Shown: piece by piece, positions 9,061 to 56,196 of the stretch
Layout: each line of letters opens with the position of its first letter
Numbering within the stretch: the stretch's first letter is position 1
Source of the DNA: Theocolax elegans
Taxonomy: Eukaryota > Arthropoda > Insecta > Hymenoptera > Cerocephalidae
DNA length: 64,000 bases
Direction of reading: 5' to 3'
Assembly: GCA_026168455.1 (NCBI GenBank)
Contig: CM047427.1
Span: forward strand, 44,920,058-44,984,057
The notes under the pieces: model-generated
The model's database searches: none
Seen by the model: the letters and a program-made list of their open reading frames with translations, nothing else
What the model was told of the DNA's origin: nothing
Translations under genes and position numbers: made by a program

Positions 9061-9570
9061 GGTATATTTTAAGTTTTATTAGTTTTATAGTGTATTTAAT
9101 TTTTCTTTAATCAATAACTATTAAAAAAAAATCGATATAACAGATTTTTTTCCTCCTACAATAAAAATAACTCAAATTAAGAATTTGAAGAAATAATTGC
9201 GGAGAGTGAGGTACCTGACTCGGTTATACACTCAATTATTCTTTTATTATTATAAATTAACTTTCCGTTTATTTTATTATTGTTTTTAAATAGACTTACC
9301 TTTTTTCTCCGATAGGCAGGTAGATGTAGGAATATTGAAATGACTAACGCGATTAGTTATAGTTATAAACTAGTACAAGATATATTTTTGTTTATTTATT
9401 ACAAACTCAGTATCTCTTTAATACACAATTAATAAATTGGTTTACCGGTCAAAATACAGAAATACAAAAAAAGAAAAGAGCTGACTATCTATTGGAGCGG
9501 TCAACTAATTGAATACAAAAAAGGTTGACTATCTAGTGGAGCGGTCGTCTATGTACTAAACGTGGTCTGA

Positions 9571-10742
9571 TTAACTCATTAAGGACTGAACGGACATTTT
9601 TTTAGGTCCAATTTCAAACGGTCACCAAGTGGTTAATTACATTTCAAAAAAATTTGTAAACTACCTATTCCGATGCTTTAAAGTGTGCTCTTTTTGATGA
9701 TGACACTCGTTTATTGCTAAAATAAGTTTTTTATGGCAAAAAAAAACATTTAAAAAAAACGCTGATTTTTTGATAAAAAAAATTTTTTTCATATAAATTT
9801 TTTTGCCTTATAATTTTCTTATGTGCCTAAGACCTATGAAAAAAGTGTCCATGATACCTAAACTTAAAGTTATGGACCCCAAAAACATTTCCAAAATTTT
9901 TTTGTTTAAACAAAATGGCGTATAGAAAAAAATTTGTATTCATTAACTTCACCAATTTTTTTCTCGAAAACTATAGACTTTGAAAAAAATTTCATATAAA
10001 CAAGAATTGCTTAGAATCTGTCAAGGAACACGCCTGAAATTTTTCAGATTTTTTTGGGAACATTTTTGGATTTCTCAAATTGGCCATTTTTTGAAAAATT
10101 CAAAAATGGCTTAAAAAATTTTGGAAAAATTTATGTTCCTTGACTGATTCTAAGCATTTTTTGTTGTTATAAAATTTTTACCTAAATTCGTAGTTTTTGA
10201 GAAAAAAATTATTGAAAATTGAAAAAAGCGTTTTTAGCCGACTAATAGTCAATTTTCAATCATATTTTTCGATGGCTCGGTCGGTAGGGCGTCGGGCTAG
10301 TAATCTGGAGGATGTATTTTCAACAAGTGCTTTCTTTACCAAGACATCGTATGAAAAAAATTCGTGACGTTAATAAATACAAATTTTTTTTATACGCCAT
10401 TTTGTTTAAAAAAAAATGTTGGAAATTTTCTAGGGTCCATAACTTTTAGTTTAGATATCATAGACACCTTTTTTATAGGTCTTAGGCACATAAGAAAATT
10501 ATAAGGCAAGAAAAATTTGGATAAAAAATTTTTTTTTAATCAAAAAATCAGCGTTTTTTTTAAATGTTTACTTTTGCCATAAAAAACTTATTTTAGCAAT
10601 GAACGAGTGTCATCATCAAAAAGAGCACACTTGAAAGCATCGGAATAGGTAGTTTAGAAATTTTTTTGAAATTAAATTAACCTCGTGGTGACCGTTCGAA
10701 ATTGGACCTAAAAAAATGTTCGTTCAGTCCTTAATGGGTTAA
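9571..10742. mobile_element. TTAA-flanked foldback element (piggyBac-type or Kolobok-type non-autonomous)
   Basis: The 5' LTR lacks this segment, so the boundaries are exact: TTAA at 9571-9574 and 10739-10742, element 9575-10738. Terminal inverted repeats start YCATTAAGGACTGAACG, and the arms extend for hundreds of bases, including AGGTCCAATTT. The centre (about 10255-10325) is not palindromic and contains a tRNA-like 5' half. TTAA duplications are the signature of piggyBac and Kolobok; the terminal CCC-like end favours piggyBac. No transposase is encoded. Confidence 0.85.
10268..10312 (+). repeat. tRNA-like half (box A region) at the foldback centre
   Basis: TGGCTCGGTCGGTAGGGCG is a box-A-like D-arm, followed by an anticodon-arm-like stretch ending TAATCTGGAGG. 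It closely matches the head of the SINE at 45131-45348 (opposite strand). The 3' half with box B is missing here. It looks like SINE or tRNA debris captured at the centre of the foldback. Confidence 0.6.
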
Positions 10743-11006
10743 GAGCAAAGGGAGGAACCAGGGGATAATGCTTCCCTCTCCTTATTACTTCTTCCTTCCT
10801 TTGGTCTTAACTATGAATACAGGAGGAGAATTGTTCCCTCCTCCGGCCGAAATGCTGATGATATGCATTCCTTTTGGCAGTATTATGTCTTGACTTTACT
10901 AAGCTTCTATAATACACTTAATTTTATACGACTATATTCTTTTTAATTCACGCTACGTTTTTAATTATTAATTGACAAATTAATGTAAAAAATATATTAC
11001 TTAACA

Positions 11007-11018
11007 TTCTCCTCCCTT
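11007..11018 (-). promoter_or_regulatory. Polypurine tract of the LTR element
   Basis: The minus strand reads AAGGGAGGAGAA directly before the LTR start TGTTAAG. This is the position and composition required for plus-strand DNA priming in LTR retroelements. Confidence 0.85.
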
Positions 11019-11157
11019 AGGCAGTAACAGAAAAACAATGCTCTTATAATTTTCTTATCCTACGGTGGTCATGTGGTCGTCTTAGCCTACTAGGGTGGTC
11101 ATATGCATACAAAATAAAATATAGTATTAAGGTAATTTATTTATATTTATATATATA

Positions 11158-12712
11158 TATGGGTGGTTCTCTGTGACATCGAAGATGAAAAAAATAAATA
11201 TTGCTATAACTGTGGGAATATGTTTTAAAGGTATCCAGTAGTTCTCCTGAATTTTTTCAGATTTTTTCTGGGCCATTATTTTAAGTTACAGAGAGTCAAA
11301 GTTGACATTTTAGCACTTTTTTGCATTATATGCCCATTTTCATGAATTTTTAGCTCCCAGGGGATGCATTTTTCACTAAAAACATAAATATGACTTTTTT
11401 TGTAAAATTTTCCGAACTTTTCATTAAAAATACTTTTAAAGATATAAATGTATACTGTCACACTCTTGTAAGCCATTTAAACCTTAAATAGTGAAAATCA
11501 GCAATTCTGCTACGGACTCTGGTAACCTAATACTGTCTAAAAGATGTCTTTTTATAGTCAGAAGCTGCCTAAAAATTTCCAGAGTGGGTCTAAATCATTA
11601 AGATCATTTATGGTCAAAATATCCGGGAAAAGTGCCCGAAATATTAATAGAAATGTATATTTGTTGCCTTATAACGATGAATCTATTAGCATGATCATTG
11701 CAAAAAAATTTGTGCACTTACCTTGGAGTGGTAGAAAAGTATCTTCACTTGTTTCAGTATCCATCTAATCCCCTGTAAGCTGCTAAAAATACAAATATTA
11801 TTATACAAATGTAAAAAATTAATTTTTTTCAACAACGGGCCGAAACTGTCACTTTCGCTCCCGGCGCCCGAATCGCGAAGTTGCAATTTCGGCCTCGTTG
11901 TTGAAAAAAATAGTATACACACCACGGGAGGTAAAATGGCGACCCAATAGCACACGTTTGCCACCCTCGCCTTCGGCTCGGACGGCAATTTACGTGTACT
12001 ATAGGCTCACCAATACTTTACCTCCCTAGATGTGTAATATACTATTTAAACACTTATAATGCTGAATTTTTAGTTTTTCATCCCTTACAAGAATTATAAT
12101 ACTAATCTGAAGGATTACTATAAATATATAAACATCATTATTATAATAACTGAATATACGTATTTAATACAAAAGATATATAAATAAATCAGATATATAA
12201 TTATAATGAATAATATGATAACGTGACAGTGACAAGTTTGTGAAATCTATGTTGACCATAAGTGATCTTAATGATTTAGACCCACTCTGGAAGTTTTTAG
12301 GCAGTTTCTGACTATAAAAAGACATCTTTTAGACAGTATTAGGTTACCAGAGTCCGGAGCAGAATTGCTGATTTTCACTATTTAAGGTTTAAATGGCTTA
12401 CAAGAGTGTGACAGCATACATTTATGTCTTTAAAAGTATTTTTAATGAAAAGTTCGGAAAATTTTACAAAAAAAGTCATACTTATGTTTTTAGTGAAAAA
12501 TGCATCCCCTGGGAGCTAAAAATTCATGAAAATGGGCATATAATGCAAAAAAGTGCTAAAATGTCAACTTTGACTCTCTGTAACTTAAAATAATGGCCCA
12601 GAAAAAATCTGAAAAAATTCAGGAGAACTACTGGATACCTCTAAAACATATTCCCACAATTATAGCAATATTTATTTTTTTCATCTTCGATGTCACAGAG
12701 AACCAACCATAT
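11158..12712. mobile_element. Foldback element family 1, copy 2, in the 3' UTR of the LTR element
   Basis: Starts GGGTGGTTCTCTGTGACATC at the end of a TA tract and ends with the reverse complement near 12710, again followed by TA repeats. Both arms carry the 66-codon open frame (complement 11276-11476 and 12393-12593). The right arm lacks an internal segment present in copy 3 (junction near 12250). A separate 220-bp insertion sits near the centre (11828-12050). Confidence 0.85.
11828..12050. mobile_element. Small GC-rich inverted-repeat insertion nested in the foldback
   Basis: Absent from all other family 1 copies at the same point. It has two nested inverted repeats: TTCAACAACGGGCCGAAA versus TTTCGGCCTCGTTGTTGAA (11828-11907), and TAGTATACACACC...GGGAGGTAAA versus TTTACCTCCC...TAATATACTA (11909-12050). 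It looks like a short MITE pair or a compound element; superfamily unknown. Confidence 0.6.
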
Positions 12713-12782
12713 ATATATATATATATATTTTAAGACGTGCAAGTCTATACTCGAATAGATGTATATTCTTATAGCGTATAAG

Positions 12783-14462: not shown

Positions 14463-15140
14463 TTAGTGTTCTTCTTCATCTGGATTGCCATCTACACTTG
14501 CTGGTGAGTCTGTTTGGATATCGCAATAACGGATGTGGTCATGAAAATTTCTGCCATTCACCCATCTTTGGCACTTATAATGTAATTTTTTTAAGGGTCC
14601 GTCATATCTGTTTATAATTTGAGGTCCCACGGCCTTGGGGCTCAAAGTTTTTTCTTCGGAGAGCGCCTTGAAACGTGAATCATGTTAGAAATAACAAATA
14701 AATCCCATTTTAATTTCGTCTAAGTTTATAAATGAATAATAATATTCAATGGATCCATGTCTGCGGAATATTCTATATATTTCTTCATCGGAGTAATTTT
14801 GTTTATTTATAAAATGGAGTCGTCTTCCTGCTTCGTCAAAATTATGTCTTATTTTTATTTCTTCTTCTACAGTCCTTGATCCTGGATGCCTACTGATCGA
14901 TGCCTCGTCTTCTCTGGGTTTTGAATCTTTATTTGACGCTTGTTCAATTTTTCCAGATTCCTCCATCCTAGGTTTTTTTATATTGATCTTGGGCTTTTCA
15001 TTAAACTGTTCGTCCGCTTTTTGCGCTTCGGCCTCCGTGCTGAATGTCAAGGAGATCATGTTAGTGGGCTTCTCTTCTCTCTCAATCCGTATAATATCTC
15101 CAAATCTGTCGAACAATTTTGCTGTACTACTAATTGTCAT
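14463..15140 (-). pseudogene. ORF-B: RRM-like plus HxxC-x11-HxxxC protein of the LTR element
   Basis: Second extra ORF after env. 226 codons in one frame with a single in-frame TAA at codon 152 (14685-14687). Residues 1-50 look like a degenerate RRM (MISLTFSTEAEAQKADEQF block). A charged linker follows, then an RRM-like fold at about 107-165 with LHFIN as beta 1 and MGFICYF as beta 3, the stop falling just after it. Residues H187, C190, H202 and C206 form H-x2-C-x11-H-x3-C. The C terminus is acidic. Architecture and spacing match ORF-A, so the two are probably paralogues. The product is probably RNA-binding; function unknown. A weak acceptor-like CTATAG lies 9 bases before the ATG. Confidence 0.65.
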
Positions 15141-15167
15141 GTGTACCTATAGTAGGCATATTAACTG

Positions 15168-15726: not shown

Positions 15727-16602
15727 TCATAATACTCCTCCAAACGGGTCAGCTACTACGCCAGTATCAAGGTCTACAGGCATAGGATGATGTTCCATTA
15801 AATCCTGCGCTATTCGCTTTCTGTCTATATATCTAACTTCTACAGGAGTTACATCTTCATCCTGGTCCTTTATTTCTTCGACTTCTTCTGATGGTGGTCG
15901 TGCTTCTGTGCCTACAGCCCAAGAAATTGGATCTTCGGTTGTTAAAACAAATGCCGCCTGTTTTTCGCAAATTTTTTCATGTTCAGAATATGTGCTGATA
16001 CCGACCAGTCTCTTGCACAACGGATGAACCTTCTTCTCTGTTTTAAAAAGGATATCCCATTTGTGCTTAGGATATTTCCTTGGTTCTGATATTATTGCTC
16101 CATAAATTTTTGGGTAGTTATGTAAGGCCTTCTGAGCGTCTTTGTGGTCATAGAATCGAACATACCCGTAGTTACCTCGTCCTTGTTGGTCCTTAGTGAT
16201 ATATGCGTATTCTAATGTTCCTATTCTTGCAAAGTCTTGCATAAATTGATCCTCGGTATCATACAAGGGAACTTTGCAGAATAATCGGGTTCCATCTTGT
16301 TTTTCCGCTGGAACATGGTGCTCGTTTGTTTTGGTCGTTTGTAATTTAGGGGTTAAATCATTTCTATTATTATCGATAAGTGGTCTGATATTGGTCACTG
16401 GATCAGATAGTATTGCTCGAAACAGAGTATTAGGAATCTTAGTGCGAATAACGGTTTTAATATGTCTAATTCGCGCAACACTCTCTATCCAATTTACTAC
16501 AACTGAAATCGGTGTTGAGATGTCTGATGAAATAACTAATTCTCCTTCTTCTGTCGCACGCACGATTTTTAATCCATAATTTGTTTCTATACTGTTAGCC
16601 AT
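15727..16602 (-). CDS. ORF-A: intact 291-aa RRM plus HxxC-x11-HxxxC accessory protein
   Basis: Fully open 291-codon ORF 250 bp downstream of env in the LTR element. The start ATG lies after an A-rich leader and 46 bases beyond a strong splice acceptor (TTATTTGTTCCAG, ending at 16646). Residues 105-172 read as an RNA recognition motif: RNP2-like LFCKVP (107-112) and RNP1-like GNYGYVRF (143-150), whose aromatic positions suit RNA binding. H193, C196, H208 and C212 form H-x2-C-x11-H-x3-C, a plausible zinc site. An acidic C-terminal tail follows. Residues 20-80 may be a second, degenerate RRM-like fold. I do not know this protein from Gypsy/Errantivirus elements. An RNA export, packaging or silencing-suppressor role is speculation; a captured host gene is the alternative. 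Confidence 0.75.
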   Translation of the reverse strand: MANSIETNYGLKIVRATEEGELVISSDISTPISVVVNWIESVARIRHIKTVIRTKIPNTLFRAILSDPVTNIRPLIDNNRNDLTPKLQTTKTNEHHVPAEKQDGTRLFCKVPLYDTEDQFMQDFARIGTLEYAYITKDQQGRGNYGYVRFYDHKDAQKALHNYPKIYGAIISEPRKYPKHKWDILFKTEKKVHPLCKRLVGISTYSEHEKICEKQAAFVLTTEDPISWAVGTEARPPSEEVEEIKDQDEDVTPVEVRYIDRKRIAQDLMEHHPMPVDLDTGVVADPFGGVL

Positions 16603-16659: not shown

Positions 16660-16852
16660 GTAACTTTTTAAATTAAAGGCAATTTCATTTTCATGCAATT
16701 ATTAATTAATTACCCCCCCCCCTTTTTTATTATTATTTTCTTAATCTAATTCTGCAGATTGTTTTGGGAGCATTGACGAGGGTAGATGTTGAATGTCAAG
16801 GGTTAGATTTTGGGAATTAGAGTTATCTAAAGTTGATTCTAACGATTCTTTC

Positions 16853-18663
16853 TTATAAGTTTTTTTGACTTTGTTGGTTATATTGGATAATTTTAACTTT
16901 CTTGGTTGATTTCTTTTTATGATAGATCCAAACGGTTACCAAACCGGTAATTATGAGTATATTAACTGAAAGAGTTCCATACGATAAATGATTGTAAAAA
17001 CCTTGGTTTCTTTTGTGTTCTCCTATTTGCTCTAATTGAGCGACTATATTAATTAATTTTTCTTCTTTATCTTTCCACACTGGATGCTCAACGCTCAATT
17101 CTTCTGTTAAATCGATCAATTGATTATGGTCCTTTTGTTTTTTTAAGGTTGGCAATATCTCTGTTATTTTTAAGTTTATTCTTGGTTGACATATATATTT
17201 ATTGTTACTTTTTCTAATGTTTTCTGTAATCAGCATGACTGTATCCGTGTTTCCTATACATCCAGTGGCAATCCTTAGAATTCCTATGTTTTTGATAGTT
17301 AGTATAGAATCAGGTGTTCCGGGACATATTATTCGTAGTGTTTCTGGCCTTGCTGCCGAATATAACCATGATCCTTCAGTTTGCAGATAATGCCACTGAG
17401 TCTCCAAGTTATGTTTGTATACAATGTCACATTGTTTCAATCGTTCGATGCTCGGACATATTAACATTGATAATTCACAGTCTTCCTTTATCGAGGTTTC
17501 CAAAAAGGGTTTCCTACAAGGACAAATGTATCCGTAGCTTAGATGTTTGCATTCTTGTAATTGATCATAATTGAGTTTTTGGTATTGTTTATGGTCGACA
17601 CTCAGAATTAAATACGGGTGTGTGGTCTTTATGTATGCCAATCCTAGAGTTTTGTTATTTATCTCTTGCGGAACTGCTAATGAGTATAACTTGTATAAGT
17701 GATATGGGATTTGGTCCACTAAAGGTAAGTGTAATATAGCTATTGTTTTGCCGTTTTGGTAGATGACATCTATATTGGCAATCTTCATTATCTCTTCTGC
17801 TCGTAAATATTCGTATGGCGTGGGCAATCTTAAATTCTCGAGTTCATGGTTGATGTCTTCATTTATTTGATGTATTATGTCTGGTTTTAATAATCTAGGA
17901 TGTACTTTTCCCTCCTTCAAGTATTGCAGTATGATTAATAGTTCTTGATTACTATAGATTAGGTGATCTATGGTAGTTTCAATTTTCCTCGTGTATGCCA
18001 TAGTTTCGATCATGTAATGAATGTGTTCTTCTTCCTTAGCTAAACCTGTTATTTTCAAGTTTATTGTATCTATTAAGCTTTTTAATGCTTCAGAATGTTT
18101 ATTGGTAATATTATATAGATGTTCTAATGAAGCACTAATTATGTGTGATCTTTAATTTGATAAATTAATGATTTTCTTTTGGTCTTTATATAGTTGGTCA
18201 ATATTTTGGTTTATTTTATCGATCTCCTCAGTAGTTGCAAGTCTAAATAAGCTGTGGCTCAGGCTACCCACTACTCCTAATGGCACCGTCCGTTTCTTCC
18301 TTATACTTCTGGATAACCTGGCGCTTTTTATTTCTGAATATTCTAACTTCTTTAGATTTTAGGAAAGTTTAGTTTTTGTCTGAATATTAAATCATGATCA
18401 ATCAGCATACTACATTTCCATGTACAAATTACGTTCTTACATTGATTAAAAACATATTCAGTGTTTAAAGTGAGTTGGTGTTTGTCAACAAAATCATCAG
18501 TTTTTATATAAACGGCTAATTGCCAATCTGTACGTCTTATTTTTACGGTTTCAATTCTCTCATAATAAATTCCTGATACAGACTCTAAAACTTCCAAATC
18601 GTATAGGTTTTGAGCGTCAGTTAATGTCAAAAAGGATAACGAAAGGATTATTAGATGGATCAT
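16853..18663 (-). pseudogene. env: Errantivirus env (F-like fusion glycoprotein), broken
   Basis: Envelope glycoprotein, related in layout to baculovirus F proteins. The natural start is probably the ATG at 18663, followed by a signal peptide (MIHLIILSLSFLTLTDA); a strong acceptor ends at 18680. A frame break lies near 18352. About 18290-18310 encodes a furin-type basic site (RKKR) followed by a hydrophobic stretch. A stop near 18152 interrupts the next part. From 18058 to 16853 a 401-codon frame is open, containing the Cys-rich ectodomain and a C-terminal membrane segment (LSVNILIITGLVTVWIY) with a short basic tail. The layout matches known Errantivirus Env; the breaks rule out a functional product. 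Confidence 0.8.
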
Positions 18664-18708: not shown

Positions 18709-20036
18709 TTAATTATTACGGAGTGGAGCGGGTTTCAATTTATCTACATGTTTTCTAACCCTTCTGCCATTTGGCATTTCTAAAATAACATTATTTCGTC
18801 CGACTATTTCGATTATTTTTAAAGGTTTCTTATAATAGCAATCAAATTTAGAAAATCGTGGTTCGTTTAGTACGTAAGCATAATCTCCTACTTGTACATT
18901 GAATCTTTTAACTTTTTGGTCGTAACGTTCTTTTGATTTGTTTTTGGCTTGTATTTGGTTTTCTCCCGCTGCGACCCTCATTTCCCCTGAACGCGTAATT
19001 AAATCCCTTAAAAACGAATTATAAGTCCGCAGTTTCTCTTGGTCTGGAATTCGCATTGGAAATTGGTCGAAGAATGTACACTAGTATTATATGTAAAGAT
19101 GGCGAAAGGGATTAATCGATCCCAGTAACTTTTTACAAAATCCATTAGAGGCGCGTGACTTCGCTCGATCGACCCATTAGTTTGTGGTTTGTAGCCGGAA
19201 GTGGTCAAGTGGTTAATTTTAAAGATCTTTAACATTGTTTTAACTATGTCTGATAGAAAACTGGTACCTCTATCCGATAAAATTGCTCGTGGTGCACCGA
19301 AGTAACAGATTACATCTCTTGCTAACGCGTCAGCTCTTGTGGTCGTTCTTAAATTAGATATTGGGACGGCTATTAAGTATTTGGTCAAATTACATTGCAT
19401 GGTCAATATGTGGCAATTCCCTTGTGGTGTAGTTTTTAGTTTACCAACAGTGTCAATTGATACTTTATCGAAGGCATCTATCGGTGTATCAGTTATAATC
19501 ATCGGTTCACGTGTTTTAATTCGGTAAATTTTCCTTTCCTGGCAAGTAGGGCACGTTCTAATATAATCTAGAATGTTTTTCCTCATTCTCGGCCAATAGT
19601 AACGTTCTCGTATTTTTTTGTAGGTTTGATTTACTCTTTTATGTCCGCCAATTAAGCTGTCGTGTAATGCGGCTATAATATCTTTCTTCTGATTAACGTT
19701 AGGTAATTCTGCTTTGCCATAACATATTAATACTTTAATTCGTGAATCTTGAAAGACTTTGAATAGGATCTCTGTTAAAAGTCCGGGTTCCAGAGTAACT
19801 GTAAAATCTCCTTTCTTTGAGATTCTAAAGCTGCTTAAATTTTTTTGAATTAAAATTGTTTTTAAACTTCTAAGCGTTGTTCTAATCGTGCTAAAGTCTA
19901 ATGAATCATAATATTTGTCTTTTATTACTAATGAAAATATATTATGGTTTTTGTATGGGGTTACCAACATTTGCCCAATTTTTGGCTTTTTTGATTTTAA
20001 TGTCCTGAGATCGATTGCTCCTATTTCAGACAACAA
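18709..20036 (-). pseudogene. pol: Integrase part of pol, frameshifted near the end
   Basis: Inserts the cDNA into host DNA. The 342-codon frame (20036-19008) holds the zinc finger HDSLIGGHKR...CPTCQERK (HHCC) and the catalytic triad: D in SIDTVG, D in LSDRGTSF and E in GSIERSH, with 35 residues between the second D and the E (DD35E). All are present. Near 19050 the frame shifts into a 115-codon frame (19056-18709) with the C-terminal DNA-binding region (VGDYAYVLNEPRF and GRRVRKHVDKLKPA). The stop is immediately upstream of the env acceptor. Confidence 0.9.
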
Positions 20037-21283
20037 TCGAGTCGTAGGATTTTGTCCTTCGCAATCTCTGTTTTCTGATGTGCTTTTCCTACTTTTAAAT
20101 GAGTTGAATTAATTTATAGGTTCTTGACTTGGTGGAATTGGGAAAAATACTGGGTAACCAATTTCTGCTGGTTTTGAAAAATCTAATTCAACTGGATCAA
20201 TTACATTTTCTTCTTGTATTTCTTCTAAAGGAATAAATTTTTTTAATTTCCCTGTTTGATCTGAATTTATGGGTGTACTTCTGGTTCTTGGTTCTTTTAT
20301 TTTTATTGTCGGAGTCACTGAGATTGCTCTCGTATTGGTCTTAACTATTCGGTCTGTTTCTACCTGATCTATTTCTTCATCAGCTATTTCACCTTCATCT
20401 TGTGAGTCAATTGTTATTTCTTTTTGTGGTCGAGTGGCTTTTCCCCTCTTTTTATTAATTCTTCGATTCGTTGTTGCATTATTGAGTCATCATGATTTTC
20501 TCCATCATATGGATCCATTTCTTGTAGCTCTTCTTGAATATCTGGTGGTACTTCATCTCCATCTGAGAAATGGGTTACATTTACAGTTAGTTCTGGATCT
20601 TCTTGATATTGAATGCTGTCCTGCATCTCCATTCTTCTTTGTAGACTGTCATTAAATTTTTCTATAGATTTTTGGAGTTCTTGATAAGTTAAGCTGGTTT
20701 CGTGTCCTTTTCTTTCCTCGTGGTTAAAAACTTCGGCTTCTAGCTTTACTTAAGTGATAGATTCACTATCTGCTTCTTCAAATTCACTTTCTGACTCTGG
20801 AGTTACTGTAATAGCAATTTTATTCTCTGTGTCAAAATTTTGTGATTCTGATACACCCTCCCTTGCCTCTTCGGAACGTAGTCCACTACGTCGCGGATAA
20901 GGTATAGGTGGCCTGTTATCCGTTGAACTTAAAGATATGTTTGGTTTTTTCCTTATTTGAGATGGTCCTGCAGCTAAAGCATCCTTCGGTATTGTACTTT
21001 TGGAGCGTGTCCTCTGCGCTATTACGCTGTGTTCTAATTTTGGTATAAATTTGGTTGTTTTTGATCTTGATGATCCTTCCTTTGGTGATGTTTTTTCATT
21101 TCTTAATGTTTTGGCTCTGGGTCGTGATAGTTTTCCTTTTTTTGGTATTTGATCTTTATTTGTTAAGACTAAAATTTTAAGTTTAGGTAATCTTTCATTT
21201 ATTTCATTCTCTGGAACTTGAGTCTCAATCCTTGATAAAGCATCGGCATTATTATTTAAACGTCCTGGTTTATATTTAAAAAT
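20037..21283 (-). pseudogene. pol: Long acidic linker between RNase H and integrase in pol
   Basis: About 415 codons in several frames connect RNase H to the integrase section. Pieces are Ser/Glu/Asp-rich and low in hydrophobics (for example ESESEFEEADSESIT and DEGEIADEEIDQVE), with basic patches (KIKEPRTRS). At least one in-frame stop (near 20752) and frame changes break it. No domain recognised. In most Gypsy-group pol proteins this interval is much shorter, so it is either lineage-specific disordered sequence or a captured segment. Confidence 0.6.
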
Positions 21284-21703
21284 TTATTGATAATCTGTAA
21301 ATTTAAACATCCATCGCATTAATCTTTGTCCTGGATCGGTTCTATTATGCATCCAATTTAGAGGTTCGTGGTCTGCTTGAAGAATGAATTTTCGACATAA
21401 TAAATATGGCCGGAACTGGTGCATAGCATAAAGTGCTGCCAGGCATTCTTTTTCCGTTGTAGTATAATTTCTTTCAGCTTTATTCAAAGTTCTAGATAAA
21501 TATGCAATAGAGTGGTCGAATCCATCTATTTCCTGACTTAGTACCGCTCCGATGGCATAATCTGAAGCGTCGGTTGTTAGTGTAAAAACTTTATCAAAGT
21601 CGGGAAACTGTAATATTGGGGCTTGTATTAAATGCTGTTTTAAAATATTGAAACTTTCTTCATGCTTGTCTTCCCAAATAAATTCTACATTTTTTTGTAG
21701 CAA
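21284..21703 (-). pseudogene. pol: RNase H part of pol
   Basis: A 139-codon frame with the Ty3/Gypsy RNase H blocks: FTLTTDASDYAIGAVL, SIAYLSRTLNKAERNYTTTE, LAALYAMHQFRPYL and LQADHEPLNWM. It degrades RNA in the RNA-DNA hybrid during reverse transcription. The first catalytic Asp (TDAS) and the Glu (TTTEKE) are intact. The frame ends at a TAA just after the domain, where the family would read on into DALSR-type sequence, which is visible in the next segment. Confidence 0.9.
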
Positions 21704-21738
21704 TTGGTTTAAGGGTCGAGCTATTTTAGAAAAATCTT

Positions 21739-23158
21739 TTATAAATTTTCGATAATATCCTGCAAGTCCAAGAAATTGTCTAATATTTTTCTGGTTTTCG
21801 GTGTCGGAAAATTTTTTACTGCTGATATTTTCTGCGGATCTGGTTCTATCCCTTTTTCGCTAATAATATGTCCAAGATAGGTAACTTCTTTCCTTAAAAA
21901 TTCTATCTTATCCGGTTGTAGTACGAGATTTGCATTTCTTAGTTTCTCAAATAAATTTCTAACTTTTCTATCATGATCATGTAGATCTTTTGCATATACA
22001 ATAATATCATCGAGATATACTAACATTTCAGTATTTTGTAGTCCTCATAGTACTTGGTCCATTAACCTCTGAAAGGTTGCAGGTGCATTTTTGAGTCCTT
22101 CAGGCATCCTTCGATACTGATAATGTCCATTTGGGGTTGAAAAAGCGGTTTTCCACTTGTCGCTCTCTTTCATTGGTATTTGTTGGAAACCTGATGTAAG
22201 ATCAAATAAACTAAAGTAAAAACTTTTTCCTAATTGGTCGCAGATATCGGATATGTTGGGTAACGGATAAGCGTCTCCTATGGTTTTTTGTTAAGTTCTC
22301 TAAAGTCAATTACCATTCTCCATCTGGGTTTTCCATTACTATCTGGTTTTTTTGGTACACTCCAAAGCGGACTATTCATTGGTGATGTTGATGGTTCAAT
22401 AATTCTGTCTTGTAGTTTTTTTTAATTTGATCCTTTATTACTTCTAAATGGGCTGGCGGGTGTATGTACTGCTTAGTATTTATCGGTATGTTATTTCCTA
22501 AAGATATTTCATGTTCTACTTTATAAGTACAGGGCAGTGATTTGCCTGGTATTAAGAATACTTCATTATAGTCATTGATTAGTTGCATTACGTGCTCTTT
22601 TTCTTCTTCGTTTAAATGGTCTAGTTTTAATAAGTTTTTAATTTCTTCTATGCTTTGTTCGGTTGATTGAAATTTTGGAATTTCTGTTTCACTAGTTGTA
22701 TCGGGATCAAAATCGTGTATTGTTTGTTCAAATGGTAATAGTACTCTCGGTTCGATTTCTATTTCTACATCTTTTTCTTTTGTATTAATTGCCATAATAT
22801 TACAACTATTGTTGTAGTTGGATACTATTCCTTTTCCCAAAAATATATCTTTATCTCCTACATTAATTCTGGGGAGATATCCTTCTTTTAGATTAGTTTT
22901 TATTAGATTTATTCGAATTATTTGTTTTGATCGTCCTTTCAAACGGTGTACAGTCGTGTTATTTAGATTTAATGTATCTACTATTTTATTGTCTTCATCT
23001 GACTTGTCTATTTCCCTAAATAATGTCTCTCTTCGTGGTGTGCCCTTATTAAATTGTATATTATGGTCATTTTCATCAATATCATTAGCTTTGTTTATTT
23101 CAACTTCATGGTAAAGCTTCTTTTCATTTTTTTCCTCATTTGTGGAATCCAATTTCAT
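21739..23158 (-). pseudogene. pol: Reverse transcriptase part of pol, several breaks
   Basis: Ty3/Gypsy-type RT. A 260-codon frame (23158-22376) covers the pre-RT region and the RT entry (PGKSLPCTYKVEHEI, then YIHPPAHLEVIKDQI). A frame change near 22400 follows. The fingers and palm (WRMVIDFRELNKKT; FDLTSGFQQI) are readable in other frames. A CGA-to-TGA type stop lies near 22047. The catalytic box is YLDDIIVYA in the 95-codon frame 22026-21739. Another frame change lies near 21785. The YLDD motif is intact, so the breaks rather than active-site loss inactivate it. Confidence 0.9.
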
Positions 23159-23579: not shown

Positions 23580-24789
23580 TTGGATAGTCATCTTCCGTGA
23601 AAATTCTGCTATGGTCTTTACAAGATGCGATTTCTTCTCCTCGAGTGGGTCTTTGGTTAATATTCTCATTATTTGATGGTTTTTCATAGGTGGAGGAGAT
23701 GCATTCCTTTGTGGTTGTTGTATCTGCTCGCTCGAATACTTGGGATGATTTCGATAAGTCGAATGGTCTTGAAAATTCTGTACACGTTGTTGATCTTACA
23801 GATTTTGAAAAGTTGATTGGCCTTGGCGTTTCTGGGTTTTTTGTGAATTTTGTGGATTCGTGGTATTTTGAATATCTTGGGTATTTTGAATATTCTGGCT
23901 CGCCATCACGTTGTGACGAGCCTCATGGGAGTTTACAGATTCTCCTTGAATTGGGTAATTCTGTCGTTGATTTTGATATCCTTCGTAAGATTCCTTATTT
24001 TGTCGATTCAAATAGTTTTGATGATTTCTATCATAACCTCTGTTTTCGTAGTTTGATTGGTATTTGTGATCTGGTCTATAGTTGTCATAGGCTCTCGAAT
24101 ACTGTTGACGCCGATTATAGTATTGATTTCTTGGTTGATAGTCATCATTCTAATAATAATCATTATAAGGTCTGTAATTATCACGATTATTTCTATAAAC
24201 ATGTTGGTCAACATATCTTTGATGATACTCCTCCATCCTGGGATATTCATCGTATCGTCTAAATTGATCTATTGGTGGTCTACCTTGTGATGTGTGTGCA
24301 TGTTGCATGTCATCTATATCTAGTTTTGTATTCACGAATTTGTTATTAGGTTGTCATTTATTATAATTAGGTCTATTATTATACTCTGGTCTAGTAAATC
24401 TATCATATCTGAAGGCTGCAGAATATTCCGTCATTTCCCACTCTTGATCTGGTAGTCGTCCATATCTATTTCTCGTATCGGGTAGAATGCGTGCTTCAAT
24501 TGTCGTTTCAATTCTTACTGCTTCTCTGTATGCTTCATCAAGATTATTAGGACGACTTGCGTCGACTTGTCGCGCTATGTTGCTCATCACTCACATCAAT
24601 TAATGCGTTTCTTGCATCCTCTATAAAATCCTTTAACGGCATATTGCGTCCATCATAACAACAAATTCCTAATAATGCGTTCTGTAAGGCAAAACTTCCT
24701 GCCATCGTTGTAACCATTTGTGCTGTTACATTCCACTGGTCTGGTTGTTGTGATCCTCCACGGAAGGTCTGAGGTTGGTCGCCTTGCAT
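23580..24789 (-). pseudogene. gag: Gag of the Errantivirus-like element, fragmented
   Basis: Capsid precursor. The start at 24789 (MQGDQPQTFRGGSQ) is followed by the Errantivirus Gag block YDGRNMPLKDFIEDARNAL. The frame changes near 24570, where part of the capsid core seems deleted, and resumes with a block of the kind NNLDEAYREAVRIE. The remainder is Arg-, Tyr-, Asn- and Gln-rich, low in complexity (RYDEYPRMEEYHQRYVDQH; NTQDIQNTTNPQNSQ), spread over three frames. Such RNA-binding-like tails replace zinc knuckles in several Errantivirus Gags; no CCHC knuckle was seen. Confidence 0.75.
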
Positions 24790-27378
24790 TTCGGCGTTAA
24801 TTTCGAAATATCCGATGTTATTCTTCTTAATTTTGGCTAATAATTCTATCTATTTGGTTAAAATTTTCACGCACTATTATCGATCGTATAGATGCGATAA
24901 CAGATGTTTCGACCCGTAACTTTGACCGAATCAAAATTATAAGTTACGACAAAAATGAAAAGGAGAAAATAAAATTCAATTAATGCCCGATGGCAAAAGA
25001 AGTTGAAACCATAGTGAATTATTGGGGAATATGCATGGCAATGTCAAAATAAATGGGTGATTTTTAATTATATATATATTGGTATTCATACAAATTTATT
25101 TATATATATAACAAATAAAATATCATAAATATAAATAAAATGAGGGAATGGTCCTTATAGTAGTAAAAAAAAAGTTGATATTAATATAGGAATAGTTTTT
25201 TTTATGTTTATTAATTTTAATTAATTTAATTTATTCATCGAGTTTTAGTTTGGATTGTAGTCGACGATATTTGATTTATAGTTTACTTATTCATATAAAA
25301 AAAACTGGAAATTAACTAAAAAATTATTTAATTATTAAATAATTATTTATTATAATAATTACTTTCGATGATTCCGCTGAAGTTAATAACGAAAGGAAAT
25401 TTTGAATTCGAACTGCAATGTACATATAAGTCACAAAAATAAGATGTATGTATATAAGTTTTCACAGATATATGGAAATAAAATATATCAGTCAACGTAA
25501 TTTATAAATTATAAGATTAATGAATTTATTAAGAAGAATTTAATTAATTATTTTAAACAAATTTCCTCCTTAATTTTACCAATTTAAATTAAAGTTATTT
25601 GAATTATAAACAATATTTATTTATAATGTTGTTTAGAATACTAGTTATATTTTAAATATTATTCAAGTAATGTTACTTTGGTTAAATTATATATATTTTA
25701 TAATATTTATAATTTAATTTCAATTAATTTTCTATATAATTATAGCAAATTTTAAAGGAATGACGTATAGTTAGTATTTTAATATTGGTCACTATATCTA
25801 TATATATGATTTCACCTATTTATTAATTTACCTAAGTAAATATTATTGTCTATGGTTAGAAAAAATTTAAAGCATTCTTTGAGTGGTCACAAAAAAATTA
25901 TTTCTAAGAATTGTTTAAGTTAATTAATTAGGTTAAGAAATAAAAAATAGTCTTTTTTTTGAGAACGAGTTCTCATATATTGAGTCTCATTCAAAATAGT
26001 ATTTGTTTTTCTAAATGTGTTTTAATTTGCTTAATGAATTAACTTTAATGTTTTAATTTAAATTCTTTTTATAGATTGCATATATGGAAAAAAAAAATAA
26101 ATTATTTATAATTATTTAATGTTATAAAATTTATTTTTAATTGTTACTTTTATAATTTTCCTTTCATTTTATGAGTTTATTTATACCGTTTTTTTTATTT
26201 ATCAATTTAAACTAGCATTAGCAACACACACTTGTTTAATTTATTATTTGAAACAATATTAAATAACAAGATATTTGTGTATATTTTATTATATATAAGG
26301 AAGTAGAAAAAATGGTTTAATATTTCTTTATTTATTATTAATAGGTGCATTAATTCTTTATTATATTTAATGTATTGATTGTAAAAAGGTAACAGAATAA
26401 GTATTTTTCTTTAAAAAATTAAACGCAGATTTATATTATTTGAAACAATATTAAGTTACATCCGGTCGAAATTTTCTCACGACGAGAATAATGAATGTGC
26501 TCATTCATCAGAAAATACAACACCGTTTAGAAGTTTAGATTTTCTTTTCCTTGTTTCGCAATGACTAACTATATAGTTATTTAATTATTTATTACACGTA
26601 CAATTTAAAAAACTTATTCTCAACTCGTGTAATTATTTATTATTTATTTCTGGGTTTATCTTTTCTTGAAAAATATATATGTATATCACGTGTATATCAT
26701 GAGACCGAACCGATTTTCACTTTGCCCTATCGTAAACTGGGATTATAAAGGATTATACCCAGGTACCGATTTCCTTTTATTTTATTTCAAAACGGTATAC
26801 ACTTAAACGTAATAGTTATAACTTTTATTATATGTATTTTAAAATTTTGTTTAATATAGTTTCGACGAAATGTAACGAAATTATTTACAAAATTTAACAA
26901 ATTTAATTTATGATTTCGTATGTATTTAGTTTGTATGTTTGGATTGATTCATATAATTCACGATTATTACTTTATTAGTGTACATTTAATTATTAAATTT
27001 TTTTTTATTATTGTAATATTGATTAATTGTTAATCTGGTTTATATTAATGACTATAAAAAAAATATAAGAACGAAGATACAATAAAAAACTCTCGATTTT
27101 CTTATCCTTCAAAAGAATTTTAGTATATTATTTATTTATTTATTTATTCCTTTTTTCTGAAAATTTGGTTACGTGGAAGCTAAAGGCAATTTTATTTTAT
27201 ATGCGACACTCCTTAATTTTTCACTCGCGTTTTCACTTATACGATGACCCGTACACTATCTAATTTTTTTATAAATAAAGAAAAAGAAGGATAAGGTCGG
27301 TCCTGTAAAACGATGAGATATAGAAAAAAAGAAATTTTGGTACAATACTAGTTGTACTCATTAGTAACCATAAAAAAG

Positions 27379-27452
<74 letters not shown>
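24790..27452 (-). other. Leader (5' UTR) of the LTR element, gag-proximal part
   Basis: Very AT-rich with no recognisable protein. Contains an (AC)n(AT)n composite microsatellite at 27380-27452. With 28829-29381 it makes a leader of about 3.2 kb after removing the nested LTR, long for this group. A splice donor for env or accessory mRNAs should lie in it; I could not single one out. Confidence 0.5.
27380..27452. repeat. (AC)n(TA)n microsatellite
   Basis: About 19 AC units followed by about 16 TA units, immediately left of a nested solo LTR. Confidence 0.9.
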
Positions 27453-27455
<3 letters not shown>

Positions 27456-28828
27456 AAAGGTAAGCTACATACTTTTATGCGTATGAAGCTATACCTTATA
27501 ACGAGCGCGAGTGACGATCGGAAAAGCTCGTAGGTGATCGGGAAAGCCCGTGCGTAAGCCGCGTAAGGGCTAATAATGGTCCGACGCGCAAGCTGACTGA
27601 GGAGAGTAGATAGAGAGTTTATGCGAGTCATCGTAGATAGACACGTCGCCGGTAACGCCTTCATTGCTAATTCGTGGCAAGAGAAAAAGAATCGTTATTG
27701 CGGATTCTTCCTCGGGTTCTGGGTTTCGCGCCGTGAAGAGTGAGTAATTCGGTGGAATGAGCGTGCTGGTGTTAAGTGCACAGCTCCAGCGACTCCCAGG
27801 AACCTGCGAGGACGGCGAAGTTGCCGCGCGCGAGAGCCCGACGGAGAGAGGGGAAACAGGCGAAGTCGATGGCGCATCGACGGGGAGAATCGAGATTCAA
27901 GGTACGTGGTGCACCACTCGCGAGCCGCCGAAGCCGTAAAGACTCTCTCTTTACGGCTATATCTTTGAGTTAGGGATCGGCGGATCTCGCCCGCGCGTGA
28001 CGGCGAGGAAGCTAACGGGCGACCGCGTACGCGTGCTAGAAAGAAGAGAAAGTGCGAGTAACTCCGGTGGTTACACCTCGTCGCGAGACCTCACGCGGCC
28101 TATATACGGCTTTTGTCATTTCCTTATATTCTATGTTAAACTAAATTTATATTTTTAAATTAATATTGAATTTTGTTGGTCTTGCTGAGCTAACGTCTAA
28201 CGACTCTAAGAACTCCAAGTTGCTCGCTCGAAAAGGCACGACAATTCGCCGCGTATCAATCCCGAGGACAACATTATGAATTCATAATGTTGTCCTCGGG
28301 ATTGATACGCGGCGAATTGTCGTGCCTTTTCGAGCGAGCAACTTGGAGTTCTTAGAGTCGTTAGACGTTAGCTCAGCAAGACCAACAAAATTCAATATTA
28401 ATTTAAAAACTTTTGCCTGGGCGAGAAAAAATTATATTTTTAATAAATTTATATTTCTTTATAATAAATAAAATTCATATGTAATCAATGTCCGAGTACG
28501 AGTTTAATTGTTGATTACCGGCGTATGTTATTCCCGTTATCCCGAATACCGCCCTCTCCGTTTTAGGAGCGGCCGAGGTAAACTTATCGTGAATTTATCC
28601 CTTTTATTCGCGGTCCTTTTCAGCTCACGTTTTAGCTGTACAAAGACGCGAGATCGGCAAGTGATTTCGCGGTTGTTAACGGACATCGCAACGGTAGGTC
28701 GTGCGCGGGGTTCACTGATTTGAATCCGCCGCGCACTCTCGGAGCACCACCTAGGGAGTATAACTAGGCAGTGCCGTAGCTACCGATCCCTTTACCCTTA
28801 CCTACGCGAGAGATTGTACCCCGTTACA
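27453..28828. mobile_element. Solo-LTR-like element (TGTAAAGG...CCGTTACA), copy 1, with nested palindrome
   Basis: A second copy occurs at 50502-51572, so both ends are defined by comparison: TGTAAAGGTAAG at the left and GTACCCCGTTACA at the right (TG...CA, short inverted ends). It is GC-rich (CpG-containing) in AT-rich surroundings, without a protein I recognise. The size of about 1.1 kb without the insertion, and the absence of PBS or coding DNA, fit a solo LTR. Orientation not determined. Short open frames inside are not conserved as proteins between the copies. Confidence 0.65.
28152..28409. repeat. 258-bp perfect palindrome (129-bp arms, no spacer)
   Basis: The left arm 28152-28280 is the exact reverse complement of 28281-28409, centred on GAATTC. 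It is absent from the sister copy at 50502-51572, so it is an insertion with a few flanking bases of extra sequence. It is either a tiny foldback element or an assembly artefact of hairpin type. Confidence 0.9.
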
Positions 28829-29322
28829 ATATATATATGTATAATTCATTTAATTCGTTGATTCTTATGTTATTTTATCTTATTGAAAATAAACGTTATT
28901 ACAATCACCCTTTATAATAATTTTTATTATACTTTTTTTTTCTAATTCTTTACCATGTAATGATTTTATTTATTAATCAATGCAATTAAATTGATCTTCT
29001 ACTTTTCATTTATTTTGCAAATTTATTTATAAATATCTTTATTAATAAAGCTACATATTTTCCTCAAATTTATTAAATAGATATTTTATTATTTTATTCA
29101 TCAATCTATTTCATTTGCATAAAAAAATAAAGCTTTACTTTTCTATTCTCATTATTTATTTCGACTAATATTTATTAAAATTAAAACAATTATAAATCAG
29201 TAATAAATTTGCGACAGTATAAATCAATAAAAAATTCTGAATTTTCACTTGTTTACTTATTACTGGGAAACAATTTAAAATAAAATATATACGTTTCAAA
29301 CATAAAATATATATATAAACAT

Positions 29323-29359
<37 letters not shown>

Positions 29360-29381
29360 GAGTATACAAGCAACGAGTCGT
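28829..29381 (-). other. Leader of the LTR element, PBS-proximal part
   Basis: AT-rich, with a (TA)n tract at 29330-29356. No coding potential recognised. Confidence 0.5.
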
Positions 29382-29399
29382 GTCCCTGTTCGGGCGCCA
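29382..29399 (-). promoter_or_regulatory. Primer-binding site, tRNA-Lys(UUU)
   Basis: The minus strand reads TGGCGCCCGAACAGGGAC, an 18-base perfect complement of the 3' end of tRNA-Lys3 including CCA. It directly abuts the 5' LTR and fixes element orientation and LTR boundary. Confidence 0.95.
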
Positions 29400-30166
29400 A
29401 GTTTTTTTAAGTTTCATAGTATATTTAATTTTTCTTTAATCAATAACTATTAAAAAAAATCGATATTACAGATTTTTTTTCCTCCTATAATAAAAATAAG
29501 TCAAATTAAGAATTTGAAGAAATAATTGCGGAGAGTGAGGTACCTGACTCGGTTATGCAATTAATTATTCTTTTATTATTATAAATTAACTTTCCGTTTA
29601 TTTTATTATTGTTTTTAAATAGACTTACCTTTTTTTCTCCGACAGGCAGGTAGATGTAGGAATATTGAAATGACTTACGCGATTAGTTATAGTTATAAAC
29701 TAGTACAAGATATATTTTTGTTTATTTATTACAAACTCAGTATCTCTTTAATACACAATTGATAAATTGGTGTATCGGTCAAAATACAGAAATACAAAAA
29801 AAGAAAAGAGCTGACTATCTATAGGAGCGGTCAACTAATTGAATACAAAAAAGGTTGACTATCTACTAGAGCGGTCAACTATGTACTAAACGTGGTCTGA
29901 TTAAGAGCAAAGGGAGGAACCAGGGGAAAATGCTTCCCTCTCCTTATTACTTCCTCCTTCTTTTGGTCTTAACTATGAATACAGGAGGAAAATTGTTCTC
30001 TCCTCCTGCCGAAATGCTGATGTTACGCATTTCTTTTGGCAGTATTGTCTTGACTTTACTAAGCTTCTATAATACACTTAATTTTATACGACTATATTCT
30101 TTTTAATTCACGCTACGTTTTGAATTATTAATTGCCAAATTAATGTAAAAAATATATTACTTAACA
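29400..30166 (-). repeat. 5' LTR of the Errantivirus-like element
   Basis: 767 bp. The minus strand runs from TGTTAAG at 30166 to ...AAAACT at 29400, next to the PBS. It matches the 3' LTR over its full length apart from the nested TTAA element there. The LTR should provide promoter and poly-A signals. Confidence 0.9.
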
Positions 30167-30900
30167 GTCCATACACAGAACGACGATGATTCATTAATTC
30201 CTAAACATAAGTAACCCAAAATCATAATGAAATGTTTAATACTGTTTGATATTAGTGATTTAAAATAAATTTTCTTAATTACTTGAGATTGTTCATCAAG
30301 AAGTGTTCCTTTTTTAACAGATTGTATAAAGTTAGTGTGTGAAGTTAGAATGTCGTTGAGTGACGATGCTTGTCTCAGCTGCTTAGCAAAAATACACCCC
30401 AGGAACATTCAATCACCTGCAAATAAAAATTATTGCAGTTACAAATAACTGCTTCTTTTTTTTTTTGCATTAAATTATTTACCAACCTCGAATAAAAAGT
30501 AATACTGCATTTGATGTACTAAATGTACCATACTACTAGTAATTAAATGAATGTGTTTCTGTATTGGTAAAATTTCAGGCATTTTCCTAAACATTTTTGC
30601 AGAAGTGATTTGTTGTTTCAATATTGCTTGATATGTTTGACGACTGGGCTCCAGAATCTAAATTATTAAATAAATAATTTTATTAACAAATAATTATATT
30701 TTTAACTTCTCTAAAATAATTTATTCAGATAATTAATAAACATTTCCTAAATTTTTTTTACGATTTTTATTTAAATCTTGATACTTACAAATGTAGTAAA
30801 AACAAAAAATTTAAATAATTATTATACTGTACCTGTGAAAACTGTAGTCCAAAACCAAGAATTCAAATTATCAACATTAAATATAACCAATAATTGTCAC
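30167..30900 (-). pseudogene. Gamma-tubulin complex component (GCP family), C-terminal fragment cut by the LTR
   Basis: GCP proteins form the microtubule-nucleating ring. One exon, complement 30487-30657, encodes ILEPSRQTYQAILKQQITSA and then MVHLVHQMQYYFLFE, matching the conserved C-terminal block of the family. Clean splice sites (TTTAG acceptor; GAG|GTTGGT donor) lead to a second exon from 30416, starting VIECSW. That exon then shifts frame into QLRQASSLNDILTSHTNFIQ and LLDEQS, also GCP-like. It runs into the LTR at 30166, which supplies the stop. A further possible exon lies near 30840-30900. Which paralogue (GCP4, 5 or 6) cannot be told. The frame shift and truncation make it a pseudogene or a disrupted allele. 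Confidence 0.65.
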
Positions 30901-55424: not shown

Positions 55425-56196
55425 ATGAATAAAAGAAATGAAGAATAAGTTGAGAATTGTAAAACAAAACTAATAATTGAAAACAGAATGAATGCTTTAA
55501 TAGACCAAATTCAAACTTGTTCGTTGAAATTTTCAGAGTCACTGAAAACACTATCCACGAGGTTTTCGGGGTTGTTGTACACGAATATGGGCTCAGAATT
55601 TTAACTGGGTACCCCCGGTGTAACTCTTAAATGTTTGAATATCTGCACATTAGTGCATATTTAAACATTTTCTCAAATTTGCATCTTGCTATTTTTTTAT
55701 AAATTTGCTAGAATTAGTCGTGTTTATCTATTCCTTAAACTGACGAAATCTTATTCACATATCAGGCATCCCCAAAATTTTTTAAAGTTATAAAAACCGT
55801 GAAAAAGCGAATAAAATCCATATTAAAATGGTAAGATTCGGAGTAAAACAGTTTTTTATGAGTGTACGTGGTTTTTGTGTATTTGACTTGCTAAACCCAA
55901 ATCCAGGGCTTATTTTACCCGATTGGATCAGACTGTCTTGCCTTCACCGGCAGGACACCAGCGTGTCTTGCATTATTGCAATTTTTTATTTTTGCAAATT
56001 TTTGAATTTTGCAAATTTTTTATTTTTGCAAATTTTTGAATTTTGCAAATTTTTTATTTTTGCAAATTTTCCAATTTTGCAAATTTTTTATTTTTGCAAA
56101 TTTTCCAATTTGCAAATTTTTTAGTGTTACTTTGTATTTAAGCATTCCATCGTAGAGAGACAAAGGAGAATCAGTTAAGCAAGCATCCCTACGTGA

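What the first reader, a model, noticed from the sequence alone, without database searches (positions are those of the whole stretch)
15727..16602. Intact RRM plus HxxC-x11-HxxxC ORF downstream of env in an Errantivirus-like retroelement
A 291-codon open frame between env and the 3' LTR has an RRM with readable RNP2 (LFCKVP) and RNP1 (GNYGYVRF), then a putative zinc site H193/C196/H208/C212. Gag, pol and env of the same element are all broken, yet this frame is clean. Accessory genes downstream of env are not part of the Errantivirus plan as I know it, so this may be an undescribed retroelement accessory protein (RNA export, packaging or silencing suppression are conjectures).
Basis: partly seen in the sequence, partly recalled or inferred. 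Interest (0 to 1): 0.88.

Follow-up and report, generated by a model that had tools for sequence, protein, structure and literature searches.

The report
Insect retrovirus with captured RNA-binding genes
A family of insect retroviruses carries, after its envelope gene, two extra genes for RNA-binding proteins whose core resembles that of the host gene RBM45, so these viruses are more complex than insect retroviruses are usually described.

Summary
Window 15727-16602 (-) is a clean 291-codon frame with an RRM (Pfam E 4.6e-5) and an exact HxxC-x11-HxxxC site, between env and the 3' LTR of a decayed errantivirus-like element. It is one of two such genes: a second RRM+finger gene (B) follows it. 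In the same 658 Mb genome the order env-A-B recurs: 43 of 57 env loci have A downstream, 0 of 57 on the opposite strand. At least four lineages carry the pair; env is about 38-53% identical between them and A about 25-43% over the aligned part. dN/dS is below 1 in 57 of 57 A pairs and 49 of 49 B pairs kept. The copy whose ends were read has identical 610-bp LTRs and a 4-bp target duplication. RBM45 is the best single-domain PDB match for four of five A/B proteins tried (not 114); the host RBM45 gene is present separately. Best reading: an RBM45-type RRM was captured, given a zinc finger and duplicated, as RNA regulators in an HTLV-pX-like position. Two-gene anatomy and selection are well supported, the origin fairly so; the mechanism is inferred. 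The intactness of this one copy needs no special cause.

The parts
15727..16602 (-). RRM-A: 291-aa accessory protein between env and the 3' LTR
   Evidence: open frame; homologues downstream of env; dN/dS below 1
16075..16302 (-). RRM of A (residues 101-176), closest single domain in the PDB: RBM45 RRM2
15967..16026 (-). HxxC-x11-HxxxC putative zinc site of A (residues 193-212)
   Evidence: invariant in five A proteins; motif counts and shuffles
14685..15146 (-). RRM-B: second accessory gene, part with RRM sequence; ends at an in-frame stop in this copy
   Evidence: RRM_1 E 2.1e-5, two stretches; homologous to B of F2
14523..14582 (-). HxxC-x11-HxxxC of B, beyond the in-frame stop
   Evidence: three-frame reading, sequence
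16744..18654 (-). env (Baculo_F-type), in three pieces in two alternating frames
   Evidence: tblastn with F2 env; F2 env Pfam Baculo_F E 4.6e-34
18718..21852 (-). pol (RT-RNaseH, integrase), pieces in several frames
   Evidence: Integrase_H2C2 E 1.8e-21 and rve E 1e-9
23583..24741 (-). gag, two pieces in different frames
   Evidence: tblastn with F2 gag
29405..30169 (-). 5' LTR of the element
   Evidence: 88.5% match to the 3' end of copy L009
9074..9574 (-). 3' LTR, outer piece
   Evidence: 93.7% match to the same stretch of copy L009
10739..11157 (-). 3' LTR inner piece and 3' untranslated part, cut off from the rest by insertions
   Evidence: 82% match to L009:600-999

Best explanation
A clade of env-carrying Ty3/gypsy (errantivirus-like) elements in this insect genome encodes, between env and the 3' LTR, two paralogous accessory proteins, RRM-A and RRM-B. 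SHOWN by sequence: both have an RRM (of RBM45 type in most) followed by one or two HxxC-x11-HxxxC sites; both have homologues in at least four element lineages; both show dN/dS below 1; the copy whose ends were read has identical LTRs. INFERRED: the RRM came from an RBM45-like host gene, gained the finger, and duplicated before the lineages split. INFERRED mechanism: the proteins are made late, from their own (probably spliced) messages, and bind the element's own RNA to shift the balance between spliced mRNA and unspliced genomic RNA (splicing, nuclear export or stability). That is the role that Rex- and Rev-type genes have in complex vertebrate retroviruses (recalled); the RRM would give RNA contact and the finger a second RNA or partner contact. 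About 0.9 for anatomy and selection, about 0.8 for an RBM45-like origin, about 0.4 for the splicing/export role.
For: Order: env upstream of A in 20 of 20 fetched loci (chosen for their A hit; in L011 about 4 kb away), INT in 18 of 20, B downstream in 17 of 20. Test not chosen by A: 43 of 57 env loci have A within 6 kb downstream, median 330 bp, 0 of 57 on the other strand. Lineage F3 also has integrase upstream, 68% identical to the window's. RBM45 in the PDB: first for F2 A (6.5e-7), F2 B (3.5e-7), F4 B (1.1e-9) and an A profile (1.1e-14); for window A (2.9e-9) a four-RRM PABP chain ranks above it on the sum (1.6e-9), but per domain RBM45 RRM2 scores 33 bits against 20. A human RBM45 query in the genome finds the host gene first (E 4e-21); of its 48 hits, 37 others overlap places hit by A or B queries or, in one case, a B frame. 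The host exon is RBM45 (1e-36 to the human protein), matches window A over 80 residues at 32.5% (blastp 1e-13 against ten sequences) and shows no finger in the 801 bases read. Tree: A apart from B+RBM45 (82), B group (90), RBM45 pair (95). dN/dS: A 0.18-0.87 over 57 pairs (42 at or below 0.5), B 0.13-0.82 over 49 pairs (39 at or below 0.5), none at or above 1; pair L016-L026: A 0.22, B 0.40, env 0.28. F2 copy: LTRs identical over 610 bp, TSD CGAG. Precedent: RBM45 binds intron splicing enhancers of parvovirus B19 and is needed for one viral mRNA; RRM2-HOA does most of the binding to one of them (PMC7064759, abstract and section headings).
Against: No transcript, splice site, localisation or RNA-binding data. 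GAC, the RBM45 target, is not clearly enriched in the element (z -0.4 to 2.2 by region; the highest of 18 tests is GACG in env, 2.5). NES-like patterns are at or near the shuffled level in most proteins; F2 B has 9 against a shuffled mean of 3.8, none in its last 40%; NLS-like patches are present only in some. F3 B prefers other RRM proteins to RBM45; F3 A and F4 A were not compared with the PDB on their own. 8 of 57 env loci showed neither A nor B (7 if the env-B fusion L038 is counted as having B), so the module is not universal, or is lost or decayed there. Two env pairs used as yardstick have dN/dS above 1, a sign of how noisy the measure is on decayed copies. No relative outside this genome was found.
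Confidence: 0.5

Rival explanations
1. A and B work as a detached nucleocapsid: they coat, package or chaperone genomic RNA, replacing the zinc knuckle that Gag lacks, as the RRM-CCHC ORF1 proteins of type I LINEs are thought to do for their RNA.
For: The F2 Gag has an Asn/Gln/Tyr/Arg-rich tail, no CCHC knuckle and no Pfam match. Errantivirus gags have zero CCHC arrays (PMC2774666, passage). Type I LINE ORF1p is an RRM just upstream of CCHC knuckles (PMC4120745, passages).
Against: Known errantiviruses also lack the knuckle without having A or B (recalled). A and B are separate genes at the 3' end, far from gag, and have about balanced or acidic charge counts in several lineages, though F3 A and F2 B are basic.
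Confidence: 0.22
2. A and B suppress or evade small-RNA silencing (piRNA/siRNA) of the element by binding its RNA or silencing intermediates.
For: Position and faster divergence (A about 25-43% where integrase is about 68-77% identical) fit a host-facing accessory gene. Env-carrying gypsy elements of insects are targets of piRNA defence (PMC13172572, start of abstract in listing and passages).
Against: dN/dS below 1 in the A and B pairs kept; no match to a known suppressor was seen; nothing tested directly.
Confidence: 0.18
3. The RRM came from another retroelement ORF1 (LINE) or an unrelated host RRM gene; the RBM45 likeness is an accident of which structures have been solved.
For: RRM plus zinc site recalls LINE type I ORF1p; F3 B matches RBM3 and Nop15 better than RBM45; the PDB covers only part of RRM diversity; no other host RRM protein was in the tree.
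Against: The genome-wide reverse search with RBM45 returns mostly A and B places; the conserved tail after the last strand (AIISEPRK in A, AILAEPKN in RBM45) is shared; the zinc spacing is not CCHC.
Confidence: 0.15
4. Chance frame or a host exon trapped by one insertion; the clean frame means domestication of this copy.
For: In this copy gag, pol, env and B are broken; A is the most complete of the six F1 copies read.
Against: Many homologous copies in the same place in several lineages, dN/dS below 1, open A and B in a copy with identical LTRs.
Confidence: 0.02

Closest known systems
Errantiviruses (gypsy, ZAM, Idefix, Tirant; Metaviridae)
   Same: LTRs, 4-bp target duplication (recalled as typical), Gag without zinc knuckle, pol with integrase, Baculo_F-type env
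   Different: two further genes after env; about 16.1 kb with a leader of about 3.9 kb; the described plan has three ORFs (PMC5408687, passages)
RBM45 (host and human), RRM2
   Same: best single-domain PDB match for four of five A/B proteins tried; shared tail after the last strand; tree neighbours
   Different: A and B have a HxxC-x11-HxxxC finger not found in the 801 bases of host RBM45 read, and lie in a retroelement
LINE type I ORF1p
   Same: RRM(s) followed by a zinc site in a retroelement protein (PMC4120745, passages)
   Different: CCHC knuckles there, HCHC with an 11-residue loop here; first ORF of a non-LTR element there, after env here
pX genes of deltaretroviruses, tas/bet of foamy viruses, rev of lentiviruses (recalled)
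   Same: accessory genes outside gag-pol-env, in HTLV between env and the 3' LTR, some RNA-binding
   Different: no sequence relation known; not RRM proteins (recalled)
sORF1/sORF2 of MDG1-group elements
   Same: accessory ORFs of insect Ty3/gypsy elements (PMC11952523, passages)
   Different: short, mostly upstream of gag, helix-turn-helix-like or fusogen-like

Membership tests
Errantivirus-like Ty3/gypsy element | env of baculovirus F type downstream of pol | tested here: met
   F2 env Baculo_F E 4.6e-34; order
Errantivirus-like Ty3/gypsy element | paired LTRs with 4-bp target duplication | tested here: met
   one F2 copy: 610 bp identical, CGAG on both sides
Errantivirus-like Ty3/gypsy element | Gag without CCHC knuckle | tested here: met
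   F2 gag translation, no Pfam match
Errantivirus-like Ty3/gypsy element | three-ORF plan gag-pol-env only | tested here: not met
   two further genes after env; so filed as errantivirus-like, not as a standard member
Errantivirus-like Ty3/gypsy element | place in the RT or integrase tree | not tested
   only similarity of integrase to proteins, some of them hymenopteran
RRM (PF00076) proteins | RNP2/RNP1 and beta-alpha-beta-beta-alpha-beta order | tested here: met
   F2 A (20.6 bits) is just below and F4 A (14.4 bits) below Pfam's cut-off of 20.7; model confidence is low
RBM45 orthologue | RBM45-type RRM2 | tested here: met
   not for F3 B
RBM45 orthologue | whole RBM45 architecture (three RRMs with an HOA domain, recalled in part) | tested here: not met
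   the four A proteins scanned (246-343 aa) match RRM_1 in one stretch each; F2 B in two; the orthologue is a separate gene at C1:5945702-5946882
LINE type I ORF1p | RRM directly before CCHC knuckles | tested here: not met
   the site is HxxC-x11-HxxxC
Rev/Rex-type export or splicing regulator | binding of own RNA and shuttling | not testable with these tools
   pattern scan gives no clear signal
Rev/Rex-type export or splicing regulator | gene between env and 3' LTR (pX-like place) | tested here: met

The most novel reading that the evidence does not exclude
A lineage of insect retroviruses became 'complex' by capturing an RBM45-type RRM gene, adding a new zinc finger class (HxxC-x11-HxxxC, sometimes in tandem) and duplicating it into two late regulators. 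It would be an independent invention, in Metaviridae, of the pX-type regulatory region of vertebrate complex retroviruses.
Probability: 0.4. Interest if true: 0.87.

Novelty: new variant of a known kind. Interest (0 to 1): 0.76.

Why it matters
Insect retroviruses are described as simple gag-pol-env elements. A conserved pair of RNA-binding accessory genes, close to a named host gene, shows how a retroelement can gain post-transcriptional regulators, and gives a concrete protein pair with which to ask how insect retroviruses balance spliced env RNA against unspliced genomes. The strict HxxC-x11-HxxxC site next to an RRM is also a testable new RNA-binding arrangement.

Tried and rejected
Chance frame: rejected. 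Copy-specific domestication: not supported; the open frame of the window copy needs no special cause. LINE ORF1 origin: not favoured (zinc spacing; RBM45 matches). GAC enrichment in the element as a sign of RBM45-like targets: not found. NES/NLS patterns: no clear signal. External relatives: none in the protein collection with window A or with a five-sequence A alignment, although that collection holds 66 integrase relatives, the few named ones mostly hymenopteran; none confirmed in viral contigs with A, the A alignment, env or integrase, nor in prokaryote genomes (one or two short patterns only, so weak searches). B was not searched outside this genome apart from Pfam and the PDB. Insect genomes other than this one could not be searched, so the host range of the module is unknown. 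Literature: the searches gave no report of an RRM or accessory gene after env in an errantivirus; the one paper holding both 'errantivirus' and 'RNA recognition motif' (PMC3230855) mentions RRM only as a frequent family of a transcriptome (passages). Only the open library was searched: listings, passages of ten papers, and the abstract and outline of one.

Full report
What is in the window. The frame 15727-16602 (-) is real: 291 codons, stop-free, RRM_1 at residues 116-165 with E 4.6e-5. It lies in an errantivirus-like element on the minus strand: 5' LTR 29405-30169, gag pieces 23583-24741, pol pieces 18718-21852, env pieces 16744-18654, and a 3' LTR split by insertions into 9074-9574 and 10739-11157. 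A second RRM gene, B, follows at 14685-15146 (RRM_1 E 2.1e-5); in this copy one in-frame stop separates its RRM part from its finger.

Copies in the genome. The window's own genome (658 Mb, 1277 contigs) has 93 matches to A (one of them the host RBM45 exon) and 103 to B of lineage F2. After removing B-overlapping hits and merging, 45 of 72 A loci (one being the host exon) have a B hit within 4 kb downstream on the same strand. I fetched 20 loci chosen by their A hit: env lies upstream in 20 of 20, integrase in 18 of 20, B downstream in 17 of 20. The test not chosen by A: an env search gave 57 merged loci, of which 43 have A within 6 kb downstream (36 within 1 kb, median 330 bp), 6 have only B, 8 neither; the opposite strand gives 0 of 57. 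One of the 8 (L038) is an env-B fusion frame of 805 aa without A, so 7 and 7 if it is counted with B. Only 67 of 722 env candidates were scored, so the env sample leans to close relatives. Not every A or B hit was checked for env.

Lineages. F1 (window, L009-L012, L025; decayed), F2 (L013-L024, L026-L028), F3 (L030, L031, with F3b L040, L041) and F4 (L032, L034-L039). env is about 38-53% identical between lineages (for F1 a piece of 386 aa). A is about 40% between F1 and F2 over its whole length, and about 25-43% between the other lineages over the aligned part. Integrase is about 77% between the window and the better F2 copies and 68% between the window and F3. A thus diverges faster than integrase. 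In F1-F2 the RRM (54%) and the finger region (56%) are better kept than the N-part (30%) and C-part (33%). Several F2 copies have open env, A (343 aa from Met) and B (265 aa from Met) frames. The F2 copy whose two ends were read has LTRs identical over 610 bp, a CGAG target duplication, a length of about 16.1 kb and a leader of about 3.9 kb. That copy is young; I only describe it.

The proteins. A and B are paralogues over RRM and finger (blastp within a set of ten proteins: most cross matches 1e-4 to 1e-11). HxxC-x11-HxxxC is present in 23 of 29 A and 14 of 24 B frames of at least 150 aa; shuffles give 0 of 5800 and 1 of 4800; 0 of 75 other frames of that length have it. Of the 16 frames without it, 3 A frames of decayed copies keep the place with one ligand changed, and the other 13 end or shift before or within it. 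The F3 proteins (A and B) and F4 B carry two in tandem. The four ligands and Tyr205 are invariant in five A proteins. The site resembles C2HC fingers of the zf-C2HC_2 kind (recalled), but Pfam gives no finger match.

Origin. RBM45 is the first PDB match for F2 A, F2 B, F4 B and for an A profile (1.1e-14; the next, PABP, 4.8e-11), and the best single-domain match for window A, where a four-RRM PABP chain ranks first on its sum. It is not for F3 B. Foldseek on the low-confidence RRM-finger model also puts RBM45 first, at only E 2.5e-3. A human RBM45 query in the genome finds the host gene (exons at C1:5945702 and C1:5946622, E 4e-21 for the latter); of its 48 hits, 2 are these exons, 37 overlap places hit by A or B queries (one of them a B frame of L037), 4 lie close downstream of such places, and 5 are elsewhere. 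The host exon is RBM45 (E 1e-36 to the human protein, next 4e-21) and shows no such finger in the 801 bases read. The tree separates A from B and RBM45 (82), groups B (90) and pairs the two RBM45 sequences (95). A single capture, finger gain and early duplication explain this best; two captures are possible but would need the finger twice. The domain is short and other host RRM proteins were not in the tree.

Selection. Nei-Gojobori on open frames, pairs with at least 140 codons and dS 0.03-1.2: of 406 A pairs 57 were kept, range 0.18-0.87, 42 at or below 0.5; of 276 B pairs 49 were kept, range 0.13-0.82, 39 at or below 0.5; none at or above 1. env pairs, the yardstick, range from 0.06 to 1.31, two above 1. 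For one F2 pair (L016-L026): A 0.22, B 0.40, env 0.28. For F1: window-L011 0.28, window-L010 0.46, window-L009 0.75. Pairs share branches and are not independent. Some frames are truncated or joined to other sequence, which inflates dN. In F1 part of the divergence is neutral decay.

How it works. I commit to post-transcriptional control of the element's own RNA (splicing, export or stability) by late proteins, at about 0.4. For: RNA-binding fold, place in the pX-like region, two related proteins, and the RBM45 precedent with parvovirus B19 splicing (PMC7064759, abstract and headings). RBM45 RRM1 and RRM2 read GAC (PMC11402289, passages). Against: no clear GAC enrichment, and no localisation-signal excess except NES-like patterns in F2 B (9 against 3.8 in shuffles), none of which lies in its last 40%. 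A detached nucleocapsid role (0.22) and a silencing role (0.18) are the live rivals.

Known or new. The described errantivirus plan has three ORFs (PMC5408687, passages) and Gag without CCHC (PMC2774666, passages). Accessory ORFs of MDG1-group elements are different (PMC11952523, passages). PMC12992720, PMC13172572 and PMC12440569 gave no RRM mention in term searches. The searches found no report of this module in the open library; subscription papers, repeat databases and other insect genomes were not searched. So: a new variant of a known kind, with an accessory gene pair that may be undescribed.

Noticed in passing
L033:2655-4201, L029:1-2476; window 24742-29404: Very long AT-rich leader (about 3.9 kb in the F2 copy, about 4.7 kb in the window element) between 5' LTR and gag; purpose unknown.
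   Followed up: partly
L031; G000:C7:49618318-49624426: The A-B pair of lineage F3 repeated in tandem three times at 2,179-bp spacing (positions).
   Followed up: no
L038:2194-4611: An 805-aa frame beginning in env-like sequence and ending with the fingers of B; A lost.
   Followed up: no
L033:2655 onwards and window 29381-29404: Sequence next to the 5' LTR reads like a tRNA-Lys primer-binding site (recalled).
   Followed up: no
window 28152-28409: Perfect 129-nt inverted repeat without spacer, inside the element's leader region.
   Followed up: no
window 11142-12727: Inverted-repeat arms of 480 nt, 98% complementary, largely within the insertion that separates the 3' LTR pieces from the rest of the element.
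   Followed up: no
window 54339-55469 and 58549-59834: Tc1/mariner-like transposase frames (by eye): one 376-aa frame open, one broken near-copy.
   Followed up: no
window 1083-1928: Repetitive Lys/Glu-rich frame with units like EMTNEMKIKEAERKR.
   Followed up: no
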